Source: Calothrix anomala FACHB-343 (GTDB lineage Bacteria; Cyanobacteriota; Cyanobacteriia; Cyanobacteriales; Nostocaceae). From it: DNA of 64,000 nt. The stretch lies in contig NZ_JACJQG010000003.1 in assembly GCF_014696435.1 (NCBI RefSeq), forward strand, positions 1 to 64,000, written 5' to 3'. Within the stretch, counting starts at the first letter, position 1; every line of letters begins with the position of its first letter. A model generated the notes under the pieces. That model ran no database searches. It was not told where the DNA came from and saw only the letters and a list, made by a program, of their open reading frames with translations. This document shows, piece after piece, positions 38,011 to 47,389 of the stretch. The position numbers and the translations under genes are program-made.

Positions 38011-41000
38011 TTATTTCATCATAACGTTTTCTTCTCTTTCTATGGCACCCAGAGCCTTAAGCGTGTCTTTTTGACAAATTGTTAAACCATTAATATTTTT
38101 AATATTCATCCCTTCATATGGTCTATCAATTCTGATAGTCTTGATACATTCACCTGTTTCAATATCCCAAAGCTTCATCGTTTCGTCTTCGCTACTACTA
38201 ACTAAAACAGAACTATTGGGGCTAAAACATATTGAACGTACTGCTTTGAGATGTCCTGAAAATGTTTTGATCGGCGAACCTGTATGCATATCCCATAATT
38301 TCACAGTCCGATCGTCACTACCGCTAGCTAAAATTTTGCCATCTGGACTAAAAGCAATTGTTCTTACTCTATATGTATGACCTGACAAAGTTTGTAGACA
38401 TTGCTTTGTATTCACATCCCACAATCTTATAGTTTGGTCTCCACTAGCGCTAGCAATAATTTCTGCATTTTCAGCGAAAGCAACAGCTAATACCCAATCA
38501 CTATGTCCCGAAAATGTTTGTAGACACATTCCTGTATTTACATCCCAAAGTTTGACAGTATTATCGTGGCTACCACTGGCTAAAAACTTACCGCAAGGAC
38601 TGAAATTAACGGTTTTGACTTCACCAATATGTTCTGTTAATGTCAACAAACATTCTCCTGTATACCAATCCCAAAGCTTTACTGTTTGATCGCGGCTAGC
38701 ACTCGCCAAAATCTGTATATCTGGACTAAAGCTAATAGAATGTACCCAGCTATCATGTCCCCAAAGTGTTTGTAAGCAATCTCCTGTATTTACATCCCAA
38801 AGTTTAATAGTTGTGTCATCGCTGCTAGTTGCCAAAATCGGTCTTTGTCGCTGCTTTTCTCTGTCTGCAGATGAGACTATAATTCTGTTGATTGCAAAAT
38901 CATTTAGGTGTTTGCCAGCAAAGGTAACTGATGAGACTAAATTAGTATGACCTTTTAAAGTCCGCAGGCATTTTCCTGTATTTACATCCCACAATCTTAC
39001 ATATTGGTCTTGGCTGCTACAAGCCAACATTTGACCATCAGGGCTAAAAGTAACAGATAATATCCAATTAATGTAGCCATGCACTGTTCTCAAACATTTT
39101 CCTGAGTTGATATCCCATAATCTGATAGTTTGATTTTCATTGATACTGAGCAAAGTTTGATTATCGGGATGAAGTGCTACTAACCAAATACGTGAAGCAG
39201 GGCGATCGCCTGTGGATAAATCTCCATCTTCAGACAAGGTTTGCAGACATTTACCTGTAGCAACATCCCATACTTTCACAGTTGTATCTTCACTCCCGGT
39301 TACCAAGGTTTTACCATCAGAGCTAAAAGCAACTGTCCAGACATGACTTTGATAATCTGGTATTGTGCTGATACAATCACCACTGACTAAATCCCAAAAT
39401 TTGACAGTTGTGCGATCGCTTCCTGTAGCTAAAGTTTGTCCGTCTGGACTCAGTGCGATCGCTAATACCCAGTTAATTGGAATTTTCAGAACTCGCAAAC
39501 ATTCACCCGTGAGAACATCCCATACCCTAACAGTTTGGTCTTCACTTCCAGACACTAAGGTTTCCCCATTAGCTGTAAAAGCAATAAAAATCACCCGATT
39601 GCTATGTCCTGATAAAGTTTGTAGACATTCTCCAGTGTCAATACGCCACAACTTTACTATTTGATCTTTACCACCACTAGCTAAAATGTTGCCATCGGGA
39701 CTAAAAGCTAAAGATTGTACCCAGCTTGTATGACCTCGCAAAGTTTTGAGACATTGACCAGTATGTATATTCCACAATCTTACTGTTTGGTCATTACTAC
39801 CACTAGCTAAAATGTTACCATCGGGGCTAAAAGCTAGAGATTGTACCCAACTTGTATGACCCATATATGTGACAATTTGTTTGATATTTGTCACAGACCA
39901 CAAGCAAATTTCATGGTCAATGCTTGTTGCTAATAATTTACCGTCTGGACTAAAAGTTGCTGATAGCACACCCCCTAAAGTTCGACTTAAAGCAGACTTA
40001 CTCAAATCTGCATTGCTAAAGTTAACTCCAGGTAAGCTCATATCTTGTAAATAAGCTTGCCAAACTGTTAAGTTAGAAAAATCATAGCCACTCAAATTAA
40101 TTTGCAGCTGCCATAGTAAATTGAGAATATTGCCAGCTGCATATCCTGGTTTGCGCTGAACGCCAGATTTCAAGTTAGATAAAATCCTGTTCAAAGCAAC
40201 CTGCACATTTTCTAAACTGCCAAACAGATTTACTAATTTATCTGCAATTGGTTTAAGGATCAGCCTAACCTGTGAATTTCGCACATAATCTTTAGCTTCA
40301 GCTTTGATCAAAGCCAATTTATCAAATAACTCTATCTCTCCCGTGTGAATTTCTTGACAAATTTGCTGAATTAAGCAGTCAATCACATACTCCATGACTA
40401 CTGGTTGTTGCGTAAAATAACCAGCATTTTTATCAATTAGCGATCGCAATTGTAGAGATTCTAAATTTTCTAATAAATCTTTAAATGAAACCTGGGGAAT
40501 AATATCTTCCTGTAAATCTTTCCAGGATACCCATTCTCGATTAATTGCCAGCCAATACATCACCTGTTGTTCTAAAGTAGACAATCGATGAAACTGCTGG
40601 TCAAGTAAATCAGAAATATCACCAAATACAATAGTTCCCTGCTCTAAAAACAAGTCAATATTATCATCGAATATCTCATGAATCGTAGTTGCAACAATTT
40701 TTAATGCCAAAGGATTACCTGCATATAGAGCAACTAGCGATTGACATTCATCTCTAGAAATACCCAAGCCTTTCTCAGCAAAAATTTTTTCAGATTCTTC
40801 TCCTGATAAACCAGATAAATTTAGTGAGCGAATTGGAGAATTAATACCTTCCTTAATTCTAATACATCTAGGTTTTTCTCTACTAGTTAACAATAGGCAG
40901 CTTTGATGCTCAGTTTCACCGATAGTTCTAAATAATTGTCCGTATCCTTCATAACCTTGACGATACGATCCCGCAGGGCGATCGCTAGATAAAATCGACT

Positions 41001-41637
41001 CTACATTATCTAAAATTAACAAGCAACGCTGGGCACGTAAATATTCAATTAAAGCAGAAATTTTACTATCTAAGTTTTCATTGCAAACAATTTCTTGATG
41101 TGATAAAAACTTAATGAAGTCGTTAACAATCTCATGAATTGGTGGTGCATTACGTAGACTGCGCCAAATTAAATATTGAAATTCGGTTTGCAAAAGCTGT
41201 CCTAATTTGACAGACAAAGCTGTTTTCCCAATCCCACCCAAACCAATTAAACTAATAAGTCGGCAACGATGGTCAATAATCCATTGTTTTAACGTAGCTA
41301 ATTCTTCTGTACGTCCATAGAACAGAGAGACATCAATTGCTTCTCCCCAGTTCTGGTAATTATGAGTTATTTCTCTAGTTTGTCTATCTGAATCTACATT
41401 CTGTAATCGATTGTCAACATCCAAATCAGCGATTTCTCTCCACGAAAGCGCTAACTTTCGACAAAGTTCTTCAAATGTTAAATAGTCAACTGGTTTACCT
41501 GTAAGGAAGTTGCTAACTGTAGCTAAAGCCAACCCTACATCAATAGCCAAAGCTTTTTGACTAGGAAAACCATTGCGCCTGACTGCTGATTTTACTTTTT
41601 CAATGAACTCTGGGCGAACCCTGAGTGACCTAGCCAT
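38011..41637 (-). CDS. HTH - NB-ARC ATPase - WD40 protein
   Basis: 1208 residues from the ATG at 41637; a further in-frame ATG at 41685 adds 16 residues outside the conserved start [16 protein letters not shown]. Residues 1-70: helix-turn-helix-like domain ([20 protein letters not shown]). About 95-400: NB-ARC with P-loop [10 protein letters not shown], Walker [21 protein letters not shown] and [10 protein letters not shown] (GLPL-like). About 410-520: helical region. Then 14 WD40 repeats (two seven-bladed propellers). Two adjacent blades (about 2 and 3) share 20 identical residues, evidence of recent blade duplication. Likely a signal-activated oligomerising switch; effector unclear since no protease domain is present. 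Confidence 0.92.
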
Positions 41638-41692
41638 GACTCGTTTAAATACGACTCTATAAATTTTAACAGTAATGGTTTCCAAGTCAGCT

Positions 41693-41912: not shown

Positions 41913-42063
41913 GCCAGGTTTTGATAGATTTATCAGGTTGAACACCAGGATAAGTAAGCATTATCCATCACTATTGCTGAAAACACACCTTAAGTTTAAG
42001 GGGTCGTCAGTAATGAAATATAGCAACTTGATAAATATATAGAAATATTAGGAGATAAATAAA

Positions 42064-42582
42064 ATGACCGATATTTTAATCAATGATACCAACTTTGAGA
42101 CCCAAACATTATTAATGAGATGCTTAGAAAATGCAGGCTTTGAGATAATTAATATTGAAAATGGTATTGTTAAGGTTGGTATTTTCCAAAATAAAACTTC
42201 TCAAAAACATAACGCTCATATCACAAATTATCAAAAATCTATATTTCCTAATATTGCTCGACTCAATGAAGTGTTTGAGTTTATTGAATTAAATTATCAT
42301 CAAAATATTAGTCTCAAAGAAGTAGCGCAAGCAGTTGGTTATTCATCAGCTTATTTAACAGATTTAGTCAGAAAATTGACAGGAAAGACAGTTAATAACT
42401 GGATTATTGAACGCCGGATAATTCAAGCAAGTAACTTACTTTTAGAAACCAATTATTCTGTGGAAGAGATTGCTTTACAAGTAGGTTATCAAAATATTAA
42501 TCATTTCTACTGCCAGTTTCGTGACTACTATAAAAATACTCCCCGTGCTTGGAGAGAAAACCATCGTCGCCAAGTATCTTAA
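42064..42582 (+). CDS. AraC-family transcriptional regulator
   Basis: 172 residues. The C-terminal 100 residues are a complete AraC DNA-binding domain with two helix-turn-helices: ISLKEVAQAVGYSSAYLTDLVRKLTGKTVNNWI and YSVEEIALQVGYQNINHFYCQFRDYYKNTPRAWR. The N-terminal 65 residues begin like a receiver domain (ILINDTNFETQTLLMRCLENAGFEI) but stop short, so this may be a shortened response-regulator remnant. It heads the gene run up to 47389 and is the best candidate for its regulator. Confidence 0.9.
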   Translation: MTDILINDTNFETQTLLMRCLENAGFEIINIENGIVKVGIFQNKTSQKHNAHITNYQKSIFPNIARLNEVFEFIELNYHQNISLKEVAQAVGYSSAYLTDLVRKLTGKTVNNWIIERRIIQASNLLLETNYSVEEIALQVGYQNINHFYCQFRDYYKNTPRAWRENHRRQVS

Positions 42583-42918
42583 AAGCCAATACCCTTCAGT
42601 TAGCGCCAAAAACCTGAAAATGTGTAGATTCTGTAGGGTGCGTTATCACGTAGACACGAAGTGGCTTCCCGAAGGGTAGTGTAACGCACCGCATTCTCAT
42701 TTTTGCTTCGGCGCTTGGCGAAAACACAACGCCAGTTTACACAACGATGGAAACCTGCAACGCACTGACTCACCTATATATATTTCAAAAATCAAATATG
42801 AATTTGATATCTAAAAATAATCAACTATCATCTCATCAACAGCTAAAAATAATTAATTATCAAATAAATCATCAACAACTATTCTAGTATTAACAACAAA
42901 CAAAAGGATTAACTGACA
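42583..42918. repeat. intergenic region with repeat
   Basis: 42630-42695 is a hairpin-type repeat: GGGTGCGTTA pairs with TAACGCACC around a core (GTAGACACGAAGTGGCTTCCCGAAGGGTAG-type) that recurs inverted at 211-239. The remainder is AT-rich upstream DNA of the next gene. Confidence 0.65.
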
Positions 42919-43566
42919 ATGGTCACTCATAAATCAAAAGCTGAAGCCTTAGCCGAATATTATGCAGAAAATGGCTGGAGAACCCAACCTTTGACAATTA
43001 CATATTTAGAAGATGCAGATCCAAATACTTGGGAAGCGAAACCTAATCAACCAGATGCTTGGAATGATGTGAGAATTCTTTGGCAACCTAAAGAAGGTAA
43101 AGTTATTGTTAGTTGTTCTGCTACTACAGAGCCGGGAATTAAGGCTGTAAACAATCCGATGAATTCTAATGGTACTTTTAGAATTGGCTTAGATACTCTC
43201 TTCAAAGATGCTTGGGAAGTAGGTAAACATATTACAAAATCTTCTAATCAATTAGCTCTTGTTCAGTGTGGTGAGGTTTTAGGTTATAGAGACGCTAACA
43301 AAGATCATATCAGAACTGGAGATAAAACCTATGCAGGTAGTGATTTTGGTATTAACCAACATACAACTGGAAATAGTGCAGATTCACCCGCACCTGATAC
43401 AGTTGGTGCTTGGAGCTATGGTTGTTTAGTTGGTAAGCATCCATCTACACATTACAATCTCTTTATGCCTGCTTGTCAGGAAAGTGGACAAACAAAATTT
43501 GATACTGTAGTTATTGATGCTTCAAAATTTCAAAAATGGTTACAGAGCAAAGACTACAGCCTCTAA
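42919..43566 (+). CDS. YkuD/L,D-transpeptidase-like protein, phage-lysis-associated type
   Basis: 215 residues, no signal peptide. The C-terminal half contains INQHTTGN, then 17 residues after the His WSYGCLVG, matching H-x(14-17)-[ST]-x-GC of the L,D-transpeptidase (YkuD) catalytic site; the Cys would be the nucleophile. Related phage-borne proteins have the same NIH...WSxGCQV pattern. The N-terminal half is unknown. A holin-like gene follows 450 bases downstream. It may act on peptidoglycan; that activity is inferred from the motif. Confidence 0.55.
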   Translation: MVTHKSKAEALAEYYAENGWRTQPLTITYLEDADPNTWEAKPNQPDAWNDVRILWQPKEGKVIVSCSATTEPGIKAVNNPMNSNGTFRIGLDTLFKDAWEVGKHITKSSNQLALVQCGEVLGYRDANKDHIRTGDKTYAGSDFGINQHTTGNSADSPAPDTVGAWSYGCLVGKHPSTHYNLFMPACQESGQTKFDTVVIDASKFQKWLQSKDYSL

Positions 43567-44018
43567 CCAAATGAAAAATTTATTGATAAAGCAAAATTCA
43601 ATCATTAATTTTGTTTGTTATTAATCCTTTAACGTGAATTCGATAAAACCTCATCCACTCAGTCTCACTCTCCTCACAGGAAGAGTAACGAAAAATGAAA
43701 AATTAGTCTTTTCTCTACCTTGTACTCAAATTCAAGAGATTAAGGAGATGAGGTCAAAATCTGGGAGCATCCCAAATGTGCAAAAACGCCCTCACCCTAT
43801 AAGGGTGGGGCTAGAAATACGAAGCCTGCCTACCCTTCGGGAACGTCTTCGACGAACGCAGGCTATCAAACTTTTAGTCTGCGAAGGCAGGCTTTGTTGG
43901 TATAGCAATACCCTTCTAGGGTATTGCGTCAAAATTGGGATGCTCCCCAAAATCTTTTGCATCGAACTCACGTTATTTGCTCAATAAATAATATATGCAA
44001 TCAAATTCATAGGTCATA
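43567..44018. repeat. intergenic region with hairpin repeats
   Basis: 43823-43864 has AGCCTGC and GCAGGCT arms around an ACCCTTCGGGAACGTCTTCG core; 43876-43897 is a partial copy of the dispersed hairpin seen at 9755 and 51880; 43904-43926 is an AGCAATACCC/GGGTATTGC hairpin. A 117-codon open frame spans these repeats and is rejected. Confidence 0.65.
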
Positions 44019-44303
44019 ATGAACAGCAAGAATCAAAATGAGAAAATTGATCGAACTGTAGCTAAGAGCATATTTGCAAGTAGGACATTCTGGGGTGCCG
44101 TATTAGCAGGAGTAGCATCATTAGTTCCAATTGCTGTAAAGGGTATTAAGGCTAATAAAATCACTGTTGATGATGTTGGACAAGCAGTATTAGTACTATG
44201 TGGTGTAGGAACAGCAATTGTTGGGCGTGTAAATGTTCAGTCACAAGTTTACACTCCTGATATTCTGCCCGGGCCAAATAAATCAGATTATGAAAATAAA
44301 TAA
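44019..44303 (+). CDS. holin-like small membrane protein
   Basis: 94 residues. Two hydrophobic segments: about 24-42 (FWGAVLAGVASLVPIAVKG) and 54-70 (GQAVLVLCGVGTAIVG), followed by GRVNVQSQVYTPDILPGPN, a tail resembling small phage holin-like proteins. The N-terminus is polar. Holins oligomerise in the inner membrane and release muralytic enzymes. A terminator follows, so it is probably transcribed with or just after the YkuD-like gene. Call rests on topology and tail motif. Confidence 0.55.
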   Translation: MNSKNQNEKIDRTVAKSIFASRTFWGAVLAGVASLVPIAVKGIKANKITVDDVGQAVLVLCGVGTAIVGRVNVQSQVYTPDILPGPNKSDYENK

Positions 44304-44343
44304 AATCGGCAAAATTTAGAATCTGCAAAATTATTAATGATTA

Positions 44344-44382
44344 TAGCAGTAAGTTACCTAAAATTTACTGCTACTATTTTTT
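44344..44382 (+). terminator. terminator after the holin-like gene
   Basis: A 9-bp perfect stem (44344-44352 and 44365-44373), 12-nt loop, followed by CTATTTTTT; 40 bases after the stop. Confidence 0.75.
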
Positions 44383-44595
44383 GTGCATTTTTCTGAAAAG
44401 TATTTATTTTGGGTTTGAATAGCCTGAATAATTAATTTGAAAAATATTTAATTACTTTTAAATAAATCAAAAAATAATTAATTACCAATCAAATTTATAT
44501 CAAATAATATCAATCAGAGGAAATAAAAATTTAGCTGATTGCTGAAAAAAAATGCCTTCAATCTCACATTACTGACAAATTAAGGAAATTAAATT

Positions 44596-45519
44596 ATGGG
44601 TACTGGCGATCAAGTCATTGTATATGATGACTCGCAATATGGTGGATTTGCCCAAACTTTAGCAGCAGGAAATTACGACTGGGGTCAAATTCATAATGAT
44701 ACGATTAGCTCGTTGAAAGTTCCACCAGGAATGCAAGTGACGCTATATAGCAATACTCGCTTTCAAGGGAGGAGTAAAACTTTTACTCAAGATACGCCTT
44801 ATGTCGGTGATGATTTTAACGATCAAACTTCTTCTATCAAAGTTGAATTAATAAATTCAAATAACCAGGTTATTGTCTACGATGACTCACAATATCGCGG
44901 ATTTGCTCAGACTTTAAATGTTGGTAGTTATTATGATTGGGGTCAGATTCACAATGATACTATTAGTTCGCTGAAAGTTCCTCCAGGAATCAAAGTGACC
45001 CTTTACAGCGATACTAACTTTCAAGGGAGGAGTAAAACTTTTACTGAAGATACGCCTTATGTGGGTGATGATTTTAACGATCTGACTTCTTCGATTAAAG
45101 TTGAAAATGATAATTCTTCTAATGTTGTTAGCCAAATGCTTAATTTGGTAAATCAAGAACGGAGTGCAGCAGGTTTAACACCACTCACACTAAATTCTCA
45201 ATTGACGACAGCCGCCCAAGCACATAGTCAAGATATGGCAGACCATAACTTTATGGGGCACAATGGTTCAGATGGCTCGTCTCCATTCGACCGAATAAAA
45301 CGAGAGGGTTATTATTTTTCAACTGCCGCAGAAAATGTTGCCGCAGGTCAATCTACCCCTGAAGATGCAATGTCAAGTTGGATGAATGAAACGCCACCTA
45401 ATGATGGACACAGGCAAAATATTCTGAATCCCAATTATCGTGAAATTGGCATTGGTTATGCCTATAGTAACGCAACTCAGTACAAACACTACTGGACTCA
45501 AGATTTTGCTACCAGATGA
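44596..45519 (+). CDS. two betagamma-crystallin domains plus CAP (SCP/PR-1) domain
   Basis: 307 residues with no signal peptide. Two nearly identical betagamma-crystallin domains (about 5-84 and 91-168) each have VIVYDDSQY-GGFAQTL, NDTISSLKVPPG, VTLYS and GDDF-ND motifs typical of this Ca-binding fold. The C-terminal CAP domain (175-307) has LNLVNQERSAAGL, AQAHSQDMADHNFMGHNG, ENVAAGQ and DGHRQNILNPNYREIGIGYA. CAP proteins act outside cells as lipid binders, proteases or growth modulators. The same crystallin module is at the end of the protease at 46232. RBS AAGGAAA. Confidence 0.9.
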   Translation: MGTGDQVIVYDDSQYGGFAQTLAAGNYDWGQIHNDTISSLKVPPGMQVTLYSNTRFQGRSKTFTQDTPYVGDDFNDQTSSIKVELINSNNQVIVYDDSQYRGFAQTLNVGSYYDWGQIHNDTISSLKVPPGIKVTLYSDTNFQGRSKTFTEDTPYVGDDFNDLTSSIKVENDNSSNVVSQMLNLVNQERSAAGLTPLTLNSQLTTAAQAHSQDMADHNFMGHNGSDGSSPFDRIKREGYYFSTAAENVAAGQSTPEDAMSSWMNETPPNDGHRQNILNPNYREIGIGYAYSNATQYKHYWTQDFATR

Positions 45520-45868
45520 TAAACTTCTCTATCAAATATCACCGTCTAAAACAGACATTTTCTACAAAGACGGACTGATATAAAAAGGGGAATTTAGGCG
45601 TATCTAAACTAATTTGATCCATCGCTAAAGACTTTTCAAATATCCTCTAAGAAGCGATCGCACTATATCGTAGTACAAAATCAATTGTTTGTACTACGAT
45701 ATTGCCATTTTCTCTCTTCAGATTTTTGGTCGAAAATTATTTTCCCTAATTTTTTTACATCTAAAAATTATTAATGTTGAACTAACATAGTAAAGAAAAA
45801 TTTTTAATTACCAAGCATATTGAATAAAAATAATATGTATACATAGAAAGACAAGAGAACAAACAAAT
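45520..45868. other. intergenic region upstream of the inhibitor gene
   Basis: AT-rich, with the hairpin at 45665-45702. The last 90 bases probably hold the promoter of the chagasin-protease pair. No gene. Confidence 0.6.
45665..45702. terminator. 15-bp perfect hairpin
   Basis: Arms 45665-45679 and 45688-45702 with an 8-nt loop. It lies 146 bases after the CAP gene stop and 167 before the chagasin gene. Followed by TGCCATTTT; could be a terminator or a repeat. Confidence 0.5.
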
Positions 45869-46195
45869 ATGTCTTCTAACTTAATTCTTGGAAAGGACGA
45901 TAACGGTAAAACTGTTGAGTTGTCGGTTGGTCAAAGTTTTCTCATCCAACTAAACGAAAACCCAACAACTGGTTATCAATGGGAAGTGAGCAAAATAGAT
46001 GCGGACTTCGTCAAACTCACAGAAGACCAATATATCCAAAATATTGATTCTGAAACAGGAGGAGGAGGCATCAGGAATTTTAAATTCACAGCCAACTCAA
46101 CTGGTGAATACCAAATTCAATTGGTACATCAATGTTCTTGGAGAAGAGATGAGTCATCTATTACTTATTTCAAAATTAAGTTACGAATTTGTTAG
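45869..46195 (+). CDS. chagasin-family cysteine protease inhibitor (I42)
   Basis: 108 residues. The signature loop NPTTGYQW is at 31-38, the GGGG loop at 64-67 and Trp91 in the third loop (HQCSWRRD); these three loops block the papain active-site cleft. There is no signal peptide, whereas many bacterial members are exported. Its stop is 36 bases before a papain-like protease gene, so inhibitor and protease form a pair in inhibitor-first order, as in toxin-immunity modules. Confidence 0.9.
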   Translation: MSSNLILGKDDNGKTVELSVGQSFLIQLNENPTTGYQWEVSKIDADFVKLTEDQYIQNIDSETGGGGIRNFKFTANSTGEYQIQLVHQCSWRRDESSITYFKIKLRIC

Positions 46196-46231
46196 TTCAA
46201 TTGTCAATTATTACTAAAGGATAAATTACCC

Positions 46232-47389
46232 ATGACTAATCATGAATTTCTGCAAAATCTGCATATTTCGTTACAATCTACAAACGCCGGTTGGGAAGCA
46301 GGCGTCAATCGTATCACCCAGCTTTCAGACATAGAAAAAACATATCTGTGCGGTTTAGTTCCCGGGCCGGGTGAGCCATCGTTGGTAGAGCGAGAACGTC
46401 TTGCAAAGAGTCAACCTCAGACTCGAGGACTAGCAGCAGCATTCCCTTCTTCCTTTGACTGGCGCGATGTTAACGGAAAGAACTTCGTTACCTCAATCAA
46501 AGACCAAGGACAATGTGGTTCTTGCGTTGCTTTCGCAACCGTCGCAACAGTTGAATCTGCTGCACGTATATTCAAAAATATTCCTGTTAATTCTTCTAAT
46601 GATTTTGTATTTGAGGATTTATCGGAAGCACAACTGTTTTATTGTTACGGTGGTAGCCAAGGCAGGAATTGTGGTAGCGGTTGGTGGAATGCGGCCGCGT
46701 TAAATTTTTGTAGAGATCAAGGTCTAGTTCCACAATCTAGTTTTCCATATACTGCGGGAGATCAAGGATGTAACTTAAATGGAAATTGGCAAGATAAAAT
46801 CACTCAGGTATCTAGTTATCACGAAATTACATCCATTGATGAGATGAAAGCTTGGCTTTCTTCTCAAGGCCCTTTGTCTACTGGCCTGACGATTTACGAA
46901 GATTTTTACCACTATACCAATGGGGTTTACAAGCATGTTAGCGGTAACCACATTGGTGGACATGCTGTAGCCTGTATTGGTTATAACGATAGCCTTGGCG
47001 CTTGGCTGTGCAAAAATAGCTGGGGAACTGGCTGGGGAATGGATGGATACTTCTGGATTGGTTATGGGGAATGTGGAATTGACGCGAGTATGTTCGCTGT
47101 TGATGGCTTTTCTAGAGTCTATCTTTCTCAAACTACATCATCAGTGACGATTTACGAACATGCCAACTTTCAAGGAAACAGTTTTAACCTACCAGTTGGT
47201 CAATATGACTGGGGTCAACTCGGTCTCGATAACGATAGTTTGAGTTCATTGAAAGTACCTCAGGGAATGAAAGTTACTCTTTACGAACACGTTAATTTTA
47301 GTGGACGAAGCAAAACTTTCACCGAAGATACATCTTATGTGGGTGACGACTTTAACGACACCACATCCTCGATTCTTGTGGAAATGTAA
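46232..47389 (+). CDS. papain-family (C1) cysteine protease with C-terminal betagamma-crystallin domain
   Basis: 385 residues, no signal peptide. A propeptide-like region of about 70 residues comes first. SSFDWRDV starts the mature enzyme; DQGQCGSCVAF carries catalytic Cys98 (Val where papain has Trp), GGHAVACIGY His244, and CKNSWGTGWGMDGYFWI Asn262, so the triad is complete. Residues 304-385 are a betagamma-crystallin domain almost identical to those of the CAP protein. The chagasin gene lies 36 bases upstream. It would need an unusual export or release route, since no leader is seen. Confidence 0.93.
   Translation: MTNHEFLQNLHISLQSTNAGWEAGVNRITQLSDIEKTYLCGLVPGPGEPSLVERERLAKSQPQTRGLAAAFPSSFDWRDVNGKNFVTSIKDQGQCGSCVAFATVATVESAARIFKNIPVNSSNDFVFEDLSEAQLFYCYGGSQGRNCGSGWWNAAALNFCRDQGLVPQSSFPYTAGDQGCNLNGNWQDKITQVSSYHEITSIDEMKAWLSSQGPLSTGLTIYEDFYHYTNGVYKHVSGNHIGGHAVACIGYNDSLGAWLCKNSWGTGWGMDGYFWIGYGECGIDASMFAVDGFSRVYLSQTTSSVTIYEHANFQGNSFNLPVGQYDWGQLGLDNDSLSSLKVPQGMKVTLYEHVNFSGRSKTFTEDTSYVGDDFNDTTSSILVEM

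What the first reader, a model, noticed from the sequence alone, without database searches (positions are those of the whole stretch)
42064..47389. AraC-headed cluster: YkuD-like, holin-like, crystallin-CAP, chagasin, papain-crystallin
Six genes on one strand combine a regulator, a possible cell-wall enzyme, a possible holin, a CAP protein, a protease inhibitor and a papain-like protease. None of the four larger proteins has a signal peptide, yet CAP, chagasin and papain folds normally act outside cells. A holin-like protein could supply release by lysis or a pore. I know of no described system with this set; it could be a lysis-released or injected effector module with built-in immunity.
Basis: inference. 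Interest (0 to 1): 0.78.

Follow-up and report, generated by a model that had tools for sequence, protein, structure and literature searches.

The report
Shared-switch cluster of effector-like genes
A filamentous cyanobacterium keeps an AraC-type regulator beside genes for wall-attacking, protease and protease-inhibitor proteins, and three of the gene units carry one shared DNA switch that also fronts effector-like genes in related cyanobacteria.

Summary
The six genes are real: AraC regulator; phage-endolysin-type protein with a YkuD-like motif; small membrane protein; (crystallin)2-CAP; chagasin; papain-crystallin. None of the four larger non-regulator proteins shows a signal-peptide-like N-terminus (hydropathy only).

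They are not one operon. A tandem direct repeat (AAAAATARTTAATTAYCAA, usually 33 bp apart) followed by TANTAT lies before the endolysin-type, CAP and chagasin-papain units. In this 9.24-Mb genome its only two exact matches are both here. Tandem repeats occur in 27 of 44 other AraC loci and 0 of 34 control loci, and on a Fischerella plasmid not used to build the motif. At least 14 CAP genes lie within 10 kb of this AraC against 0.7 expected (P 6e-14). In relatives the AraC or repeat fronts CAP, crystallin, S8 protease with PrcB and leader-RNase, lanthipeptide and contractile-sheath genes.

The six-gene set is a mosaic found in no other of 212 family genomes. 'Holin' is unsupported. Chagasin is probably the papain's own inhibitor. 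Release by lysis as wall- and protein-attacking agents is inferred, not shown.

The parts
42064..42582 (+). AraC-family regulator, 172 aa (HTH_18; N-terminal part shared within the subfamily)
   Evidence: Pfam; subfamily at E<=1e-45 in 37 of 212 family genomes; alignment of 10 members
41987..42052 (+). conserved region upstream of the AraC gene, shared with other members of the subfamily; different from the cargo repeat
   Evidence: 18 of 47 AraC upstream regions (this one included) matched a common block; best window score 32.6, next -1.3
42813..42863 (+). tandem repeat (copies at 42813 and 42845, 32 bp apart), proximal copy 74 bp before the endolysin-type ATG
   Evidence: the second copy is one of only two exact pattern matches in the genome; the first copy is degenerate (below matrix score 3)
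42919..43566 (+). phage-endolysin-type protein, 215 aa, H148 and C169 invariant in the alignment, no signal peptide seen
   Evidence: phrog_3000 / phrog_33083; 29 of 29 alignment members match both; among those members PG_binding_1 in 5 and GH108 in 1; invariant columns; AF2 pLDDT 96.2
43754..43954 (.). dispersed repeat, about 40 full or partial copies in the genome, between genes 2 and 3
44019..44303 (+).
44440..44503 (+). tandem repeat (copies at 44440 and 44470, 30 bp apart), proximal copy 126 bp before the CAP-crystallin ATG
44596..45519 (+). two beta/gamma-crystallin domains + CAP domain, 307 aa, no signal peptide seen; four Ca motifs
   Evidence: (PDB clostrillin 3so1 3.4e-16, Protein S 1prr 9.1e-14)
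45763..45829 (+). tandem repeat (copies at 45763 and 45796, 33 bp apart), proximal copy 73 bp before the chagasin ATG; distal copy weak
45869..46195 (+). chagasin-family (I42) cysteine-protease inhibitor, 108 aa, no signal peptide seen
   Evidence: (PDB 6cjz 8.3e-11)
46232..47389 (+). papain-family protease + crystallin domain, 385 aa; catalytic residues present; 36 bp after chagasin
   Evidence: (dipeptidyl peptidase 1, 3pdf, 7.2e-35)
38011..41685 (-). divergent NB-ARC-WD40 (STAND) protein with a weak N-terminal HTH match; neighbour, may or may not belong
   Evidence: WD40; HTH_26 0.0085, below cut-off; NB-ARC 7.9e-11; next to the endolysin-type gene in G108, G141, G149

Best explanation
An AraC-type activator (gene 1) drives several separate promoters, each with two direct repeats about 33 bp apart next to a TANTAT box, and so switches on an endolysin-type wall enzyme, a (crystallin)2-CAP protein and a chagasin-papain-crystallin operon. 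The products collect in the cytoplasm, where chagasin keeps the papain silent and low calcium leaves the crystallin domains without calcium. When some cells lyse, with help from the endolysin-type enzyme, the proteins are freed; dilution or loss of chagasin activates the papain, and outside calcium lets the crystallin domains fold and hold CAP and protease near surfaces, where they attack walls and proteins of competitors, grazers or fungi. Shown here by computation: the genes, the shared repeat, its link to this AraC subfamily, recurrent cargo kinds and the papain-chagasin pairing. Inferred: that AraC binds the repeat and activates; storage, lysis release, calcium step and target. The set is one mosaic member of a wider, partly plasmid-borne regulon.
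For: Repeat: a matrix from the three window sites alone puts 22 of 44 other AraC loci above every one of 34 control loci and of one shuffle of the AraC loci (MWU against controls P 2e-8). Tandem sites in 27 of 44 AraC loci, 0 of 34 control loci (465 kb), 0 of 80 viral contigs fetched for one motif copy; spacing 33 bp in 27 of 31 pairs found at 20-49 bp. Exact pattern: 44 matches in 20 of 37 genomes with the AraC, 4 in 4 of 43 without (Fisher 1.8e-5; reversed pattern 7 in all 80). In this genome both exact matches lie in the cluster. Out of sample: a Fischerella NIES-4106 plasmid has AraC, tandem repeat 33 bp apart, two hypothetical genes, then beta-1,3-glucanase and CAP as annotated. Linkage: at least 14 of 239 CAP hits in 37 genomes lie within 10 kb of the AraC, 0.72 expected (P 6e-14); without the window 13 against 0.71; crystallin without the window 5 of 30 against 0.09 (P 4e-8). 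The clustered CAP/crystallin/leader family F2 is in 15 of 44 AraC loci and 1 of 16 other loci of the same batch; S8 (F7) 8 of 44 and 0 of 16. CAP/crystallin genes not within 10 kb of an AraC also carry the motif (G117, G088:C11, G122, G118, G003). Contrast: G108 and G141 (and a broken copy in G149) have the neighbour STAND gene and endolysin-type gene (83% DNA) without the 959 bp that hold AraC and the repeat. Papain-chagasin: 6 of 7; in 6 of 6 pairs both partners have or both lack a hydrophobic N-terminus. Endolysin type. Protein S match. Parallel: signal-less protease PopC held by PopD (PMC6434023, passages).
Against: No binding or expression data. No site above threshold in 11 of 45 AraC loci, window included, and none before the 94-aa gene. 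The refined matrix was trained on the AraC loci, so 33 of 44, 27 of 44 and 34 of 45 are in-sample; at two mismatches the motif is background (46 against 44 reversed). The controls were other loci I had fetched, not random, and some overlap each other (e.g. L232/L251, L233/L254); L220 and L238 were dropped from them because they carry regulon genes. Most CAP copies listed are not near AraC. STAND/WD40 genes (F1) are no clear sign: 18 of 44 AraC loci, 5 of 16 others. The papain-type proteins of G170 and G020 have no chagasin in those genomes at E<=1e-6, nor was one found by G025's papain. Operator-bearing genes include some with no weapon look (a cupin-like protein, small F5 genes), and some cargo has signal peptides, so signal-lessness is not a rule. 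A signal-less endolysin needs a pore, and the holin label fails. Nothing shows these proteins outside cells.
Confidence: 0.55

Rival explanations
1. Self-directed death module: papain with chagasin as its antidote, endolysin-type enzyme and small membrane protein kill the producing cell when infected or stressed, under the divergent STAND protein and AraC; CAP-crystallin is a passenger.
For: Inhibitor gene comes first and both proteins are signal-less; NB-ARC-WD40 neighbour upstream; 6 of 44 AraC loci hold DUF1822 (F10) and 6 of 44 a sigma-like gene (F9), and ECF sigma plus DUF1822 go with caspase-type conflict systems in PMC8195603 (passages).
Against: No PADLOC match for the six proteins; CAP and crystallin, the two cargo kinds I tested for enrichment, have no known role in self-killing (recalled); STAND-WD40 genes are no more than slightly commoner at AraC loci (18 of 44) than at other fetched loci (5 of 16).
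Confidence: 0.2
2. Surface-building module: calcium-folding crystallins, CAP, endolysin-type enzyme and protease remodel the sheath or wall of special cells (akinetes, hormogonia, fragmenting filaments), as Protein S coats Myxococcus spores (recalled).
For: The crystallin pair matches development-specific Protein S (1prr, 9.1e-14); the CAP part matches the YkwD family model (4.4e-35, below its cut-off); LysM-CAP and LysM-chitinase relatives.
Against: Patchy, partly plasmid-borne distribution and a repeat shared with lanthipeptide, leader-toxin and contractile-sheath genes fit antagonism better than a core developmental task.
Confidence: 0.15
3. Payloads of a contractile injection system, loaded in the cytoplasm and fired into targets.
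For: The repeat stands before a sheath gene in G066 (L192); AraC precedes a Pvc16_N gene in G086 (L212); this genome has three Pvc16_N hits; tCIS is exposed in ghost cells (PMC8894136, passages).
Against: Pvc16_N is in 156 of 212 genomes; the one place of this genome that was listed lies on another contig (C58), the other two were not listed; I found no loading signal but made no dedicated search; no repeat above threshold in L212.
Confidence: 0.07
4. Chance assembly: a regulator and unrelated genes brought together by mobile elements, with no common role.
For: Best relatives of the parts lie in different genomes; a repeat element interrupts the cluster.
Against: Three units share the repeat, both exact genomic matches are here, and AraC-CAP/crystallin linkage recurs.
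Confidence: 0.03

Closest known systems
PopC/PopD of Myxococcus xanthus (PMC6434023, passages read)
   Same: protease without signal peptide made in advance, held by a partner protein until release
   Different: PopC is a subtilisin secreted by starving cells with the help of Oar; here a papain with a chagasin and no route known. S8+PrcB_C pairs at other AraC loci are nearer to it
Protein S of Myxococcus xanthus (PDB 1prr)
   Same: two beta/gamma-crystallin domains, sequence match 9.1e-14; signal-less and surface-assembling (recalled)
   Different: here fused to CAP or papain
Cyanobacterial tCIS and ghost cells (PMC8894136, passages)
   Same: stress lysis exposes intracellular injection machines in filamentous cyanobacteria
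   Different: no tail genes in this cluster
AraC-type regulators of natural-product clusters in Nostoc (recalled; not in the rows listed)
   Same: AraC regulator beside exported-product genes; here some relatives front LanM lanthipeptide genes
   Different: whether those are this subfamily is untested (also for Npun_BF041 of PMC7660261, passages); this cluster makes proteins, no small molecule
Plant pathogenesis-related protein sets (analogy only; recalled)
   Same: CAP with beta-1,3-glucanase, chitinase, thaumatin, RNase, protease inhibitor or peroxidase recur at AraC or CAP loci
   Different: bacterial, mostly without seen signal peptides, mixed sets; not homologous as systems

Membership tests
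AraC/XylS regulators | C-terminal double HTH of about 100 aa | tested here: met
   HTH_18 1.6e-20; PDB RamA, SoxS, MarA
AraC/XylS regulators | binds direct repeats near the -35 region and activates (recalled) | not testable with these tools
   tandem repeats followed by TANTAT found by sequence only
Phage endolysin with YkuD-type (L,D-transpeptidase) domain | recognised YkuD domain or fold | tested here: inconclusive
Phage endolysin with YkuD-type (L,D-transpeptidase) domain | His...S-x-G-C active-site pattern (recalled signature) | tested here: met
   H148, G168 and C169 invariant, S166 in 90% or more of 29 sequences
Phage endolysin with YkuD-type (L,D-transpeptidase) domain | occurs in phages and with peptidoglycan-binding or muramidase domains | tested here: met
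   37 loci in viral contigs; PG_binding_1 in 5 and GH108 in 1 of 29 members
Holin | homology to a known holin family or presence in phages | tested here: not met
CAP superfamily | CAP domain over cut-off | tested here: met
   105.6 bits against 21.1
Calcium-binding beta/gamma-crystallin | (N/D)(N/D)xx(S/T)S motif in each half (recalled) | tested here: met
   6 motifs in 3 domains; calcium binding itself untested
Chagasin I42 | NPTTGY/F, GxGG and RPW/F loops (recalled) | tested here: inconclusive
   first two present, third reads CSW; Pfam 81 bits against 27.2
Papain C1A | Cys-His-Asn catalytic residues | tested here: met
   C98, H244, N262
Papain C1A | signal peptide (secreted or lysosomal members; recalled) | tested here: not met
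   no hydrophobic N-terminus; hydropathy only
Known anti-phage defence system | PADLOC model match at E<=0.001 | tested here: not met
   0 of 6 proteins; the STAND neighbour matched one HEAT-ARM model over its WD40 part

The most novel reading that the evidence does not exclude
A plasmid-mobile AraC regulon of Nostocales that pools very different released agents (lanthipeptides, leader-RNases with S8/PrcB, CAP-crystallins, papain-chagasin, beta-glucanase, contractile sheaths) behind one tandem 33-bp operator: a shared 'arsenal switch' into which new agents are recruited by acquiring the operator, with signal-less proteases kept safe by co-encoded inhibitors and armed by cell lysis and outside calcium.
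Probability: 0.35. Interest if true: 0.85.

Novelty: new variant of a known kind. Interest (0 to 1): 0.7.

Why it matters
The repeat turns a list of odd neighbours into a testable regulon: it predicts, gene by gene, which unknown cyanobacterial proteins belong together, including CAP and crystallin genes far from the regulator, leader-toxin genes and a contractile-sheath gene. It would link three separate questions (how signal-less proteins leave cyanobacteria, what bacterial CAP and crystallin proteins do, what starts weapon production in filaments) to one regulator that could be deleted in laboratory strains.

Tried and rejected
Holin: no phage or family match; the other carriers whose neighbours I saw sit by MATE/MerR-like, ligA-like, caspase-like or lanthipeptide genes, read mostly by eye. 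Defence system: no PADLOC match for the six. Regulation through the conserved AraC upstream block: in the window found only before AraC. Whole-operon reading: rejected by gaps of 292-452 bp and separate repeats. A phage origin of the repeat: 85 viral stretches hold one copy; none of the 80 returned has the tandem form. PR-like clusters in L252, L253 and L235 carry no site over score 13, so I do not count them in the regulon. A search for TATAAT, TACAAT and TATACT behind the sites gave none; TANTAT was read by eye from the aligned sites. STAND/CHAT partnership as a rule: not borne out against other loci; 'CHAT' itself is my reading, no model match was seen. Literature: the rows listed (top rows only where more papers matched; open-access text) showed nothing on this regulon or gene set. 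Rows dropped: L220 and L238 left out of the 34 controls because they hold regulon genes; one search kept them (36 controls; 3 exact core matches there). Of the 50 AraC matches, 47 lie in the window or the 44 fetched loci; G143:C324 and two G086:C162 places were not fetched. The CAP count near AraC uses the listed part of the 239 matches; G086, one of the 37 genomes, is flagged 38% contaminated. The 43 genomes without AraC were picked by me, not drawn at random. LanM and leader labels were first read by eye and then checked: the G170 and G020 leaders are NHLP-type, the G022 one Nif11-type.

Full report
What is there. The six genes exist as described. The regulator is an AraC-family protein. The second protein has no Pfam match but is of phage-endolysin type: it and the 28 viral-contig relatives aligned with it all match phrog_3000 and phrog_33083 'endolysin'; relatives were found at 37 loci in viral contigs, the nearest (71%, L316) in a stretch like the G095 prophage region whose neighbours match phage sheath and baseplate models, and some are fused to peptidoglycan-binding or GH108 domains. 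The third protein has nothing in favour of 'holin' beyond hydrophobic stretches. The CAP protein carries two crystallin domains, matching clostrillin and Myxococcus Protein S; the papain carries one. All six calcium motifs and the papain catalytic residues are present. Of the four larger non-regulator proteins none has a signal-like N-terminus by hydropathy.

Not one operon. Gaps of 336, 452, 292 and 349 bp separate the units; only chagasin and papain are close (36 bp). A dispersed repeat element sits between genes 2 and 3.

A shared repeat. Comparing the upstream regions of four window genes gave a 16-bp element better than 20 of 20 shuffled sets. Extended, it reads AAAAATARTTAATTAYCAA, is often present in two direct copies 33 bp apart (27 of 31 pairs) and is followed by TANTAT and a conserved stretch (by eye). 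In the window the pairs lie before the endolysin-type, CAP-crystallin and chagasin genes, with spacings of 32, 30 and 33 bp and weak distal copies before the first and third; none lies before the 94-aa gene. A matrix from the three window sites alone puts 22 of 44 other AraC loci above all 34 controls and a shuffle (P 2e-8). The refined matrix finds tandem sites in 27 of 44 AraC loci and 0 of 34 controls; this part is in-sample. The exact pattern occurs 44 times in 20 of 37 genomes with this AraC and 4 times in 4 of 43 without; the reversed pattern 7 times in all 80 (Fisher P 1.8e-5). In this genome both exact matches are in the cluster, and the chagasin site is one of five single-mismatch matches; at two mismatches there is no signal over background. 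A Fischerella NIES-4106 plasmid, whose AraC sequence was in none of the other loci fetched, shows the predicted layout: AraC, tandem repeat 33 bp apart, two hypothetical genes, then genes annotated as beta-1,3-glucanase and SCP-like (CAP).

What the switch fronts elsewhere. The AraC subfamily is in 37 of 212 family genomes and on plasmids of Tolypothrix, Calothrix, Fischerella and others. Cargo near the AraC includes CAP alone or fused to crystallin, LysM or an acidic leader; crystallins; S8 protease with PrcB_C protein and leader-borne RNase (PF00545); phage lysozyme; NHLP- or Nif11-type leader peptides with LanM; haem peroxidase; patatin; contractile sheath genes. CAP lies within 10 kb of this AraC in at least 14 cases against 0.72 expected, crystallin (window left out) in 5 against 0.09. 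Several CAP or crystallin genes with no AraC within 10 kb carry the motif as well, so the regulon acts in trans if AraC is the binder. Against this: 11 of 45 AraC loci show no site over threshold, and some repeat-bearing or AraC-linked genes have no weapon look or have signal peptides. STAND/WD40 genes are at 18 of 44 AraC loci but also at 5 of 16 other loci, so I build nothing on them.

How this cluster came about. Among 212 family genomes only G022, besides this one, has matches to both the 94-aa protein and the chagasin, and there they lie on different contigs, so no other genome holds all six together. In same-genus G108 and G141 the divergent NB-ARC-WD40 gene and the endolysin-type gene (83% DNA identity) are neighbours, and the 959 bp with AraC and repeat are missing; G149 has a broken copy. 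The AraC with its upstream region aligns over 728 bp with G170 (76%), though by protein it is nearest to G088 (75%); the 94-aa protein is nearest to G170 (74%), the chagasin to G022 (70%), where the papain match breaks off after 79 residues. The set is a mosaic.

Papain and chagasin. Of seven genomes with a papain-part match at E<=1e-20 among 118 searched, six have chagasin within about 1.2 kb (G025 shows none). In six of six pairs both partners have, or both lack, a hydrophobic N-terminus. That is what a dedicated inhibitor would show. The more distant papains of G170 and G020 have no such partner. A protease without signal peptide held by a partner is known in PopC/PopD (PMC6434023, passages).

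How it most likely works. AraC activates three promoters; proteins build up inside, papain held by chagasin; lysis of some cells, which in Anabaena yields ghost cells under stress (PMC8894136, passages), frees them; calcium outside lets the crystallin domains fold. The first step is supported by sequence statistics, the rest is inference. Self-killing, surface building and injection remain open rivals.

Verdict. I rate it a new variant of a known kind: an AraC regulon, but with a tandem operator and cargo that none of my searches showed described.

Noticed in passing
L176:7591-11971, L199, L207, L210, L216: A shared acidic N-terminal leader of about 60-70 aa (read by eye) is fused to CAP, barnase-like RNase (PF00545), Cys-rich or helical C-termini, by an S8 protease and PrcB_C protein: looks like a polymorphic-toxin-like family.
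   Followed up: partly
L252 (Rhizonema MAG contig), L253, L235: Clusters like plant PR-protein sets: LysM-CAP, GH17 glucanase, GH19 chitinase, thaumatin, GH30; no repeat over score 13.
   Followed up: partly
window 38011-41685 and L223, L224, L229: NB-ARC-WD40 protein divergent from AraC; next to the endolysin-type gene in three same-genus genomes without AraC there.
   Followed up: partly
L212, L192: AraC upstream of contractile-injection genes; repeat before the sheath gene in L192, none over threshold in L212.
   Followed up: partly
L189, L192, L194, L196, L200, L203, L205, L208: Small tandem genes (F5, 75-105 aa) with a partner of up to 176 aa (F4), representatives without Pfam match, behind the repeat.
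   Followed up: no
window about 43754-43954: Dispersed repeat of about 200 bp with about 40 full or partial copies in the genome, several at contig ends.
   Followed up: no
L177, L238 (G170, G020): Relatives of the 94-aa protein sit in NHLP-leader + LanM + papain clusters, with a tandem repeat before the gene in G020.
   Followed up: partly
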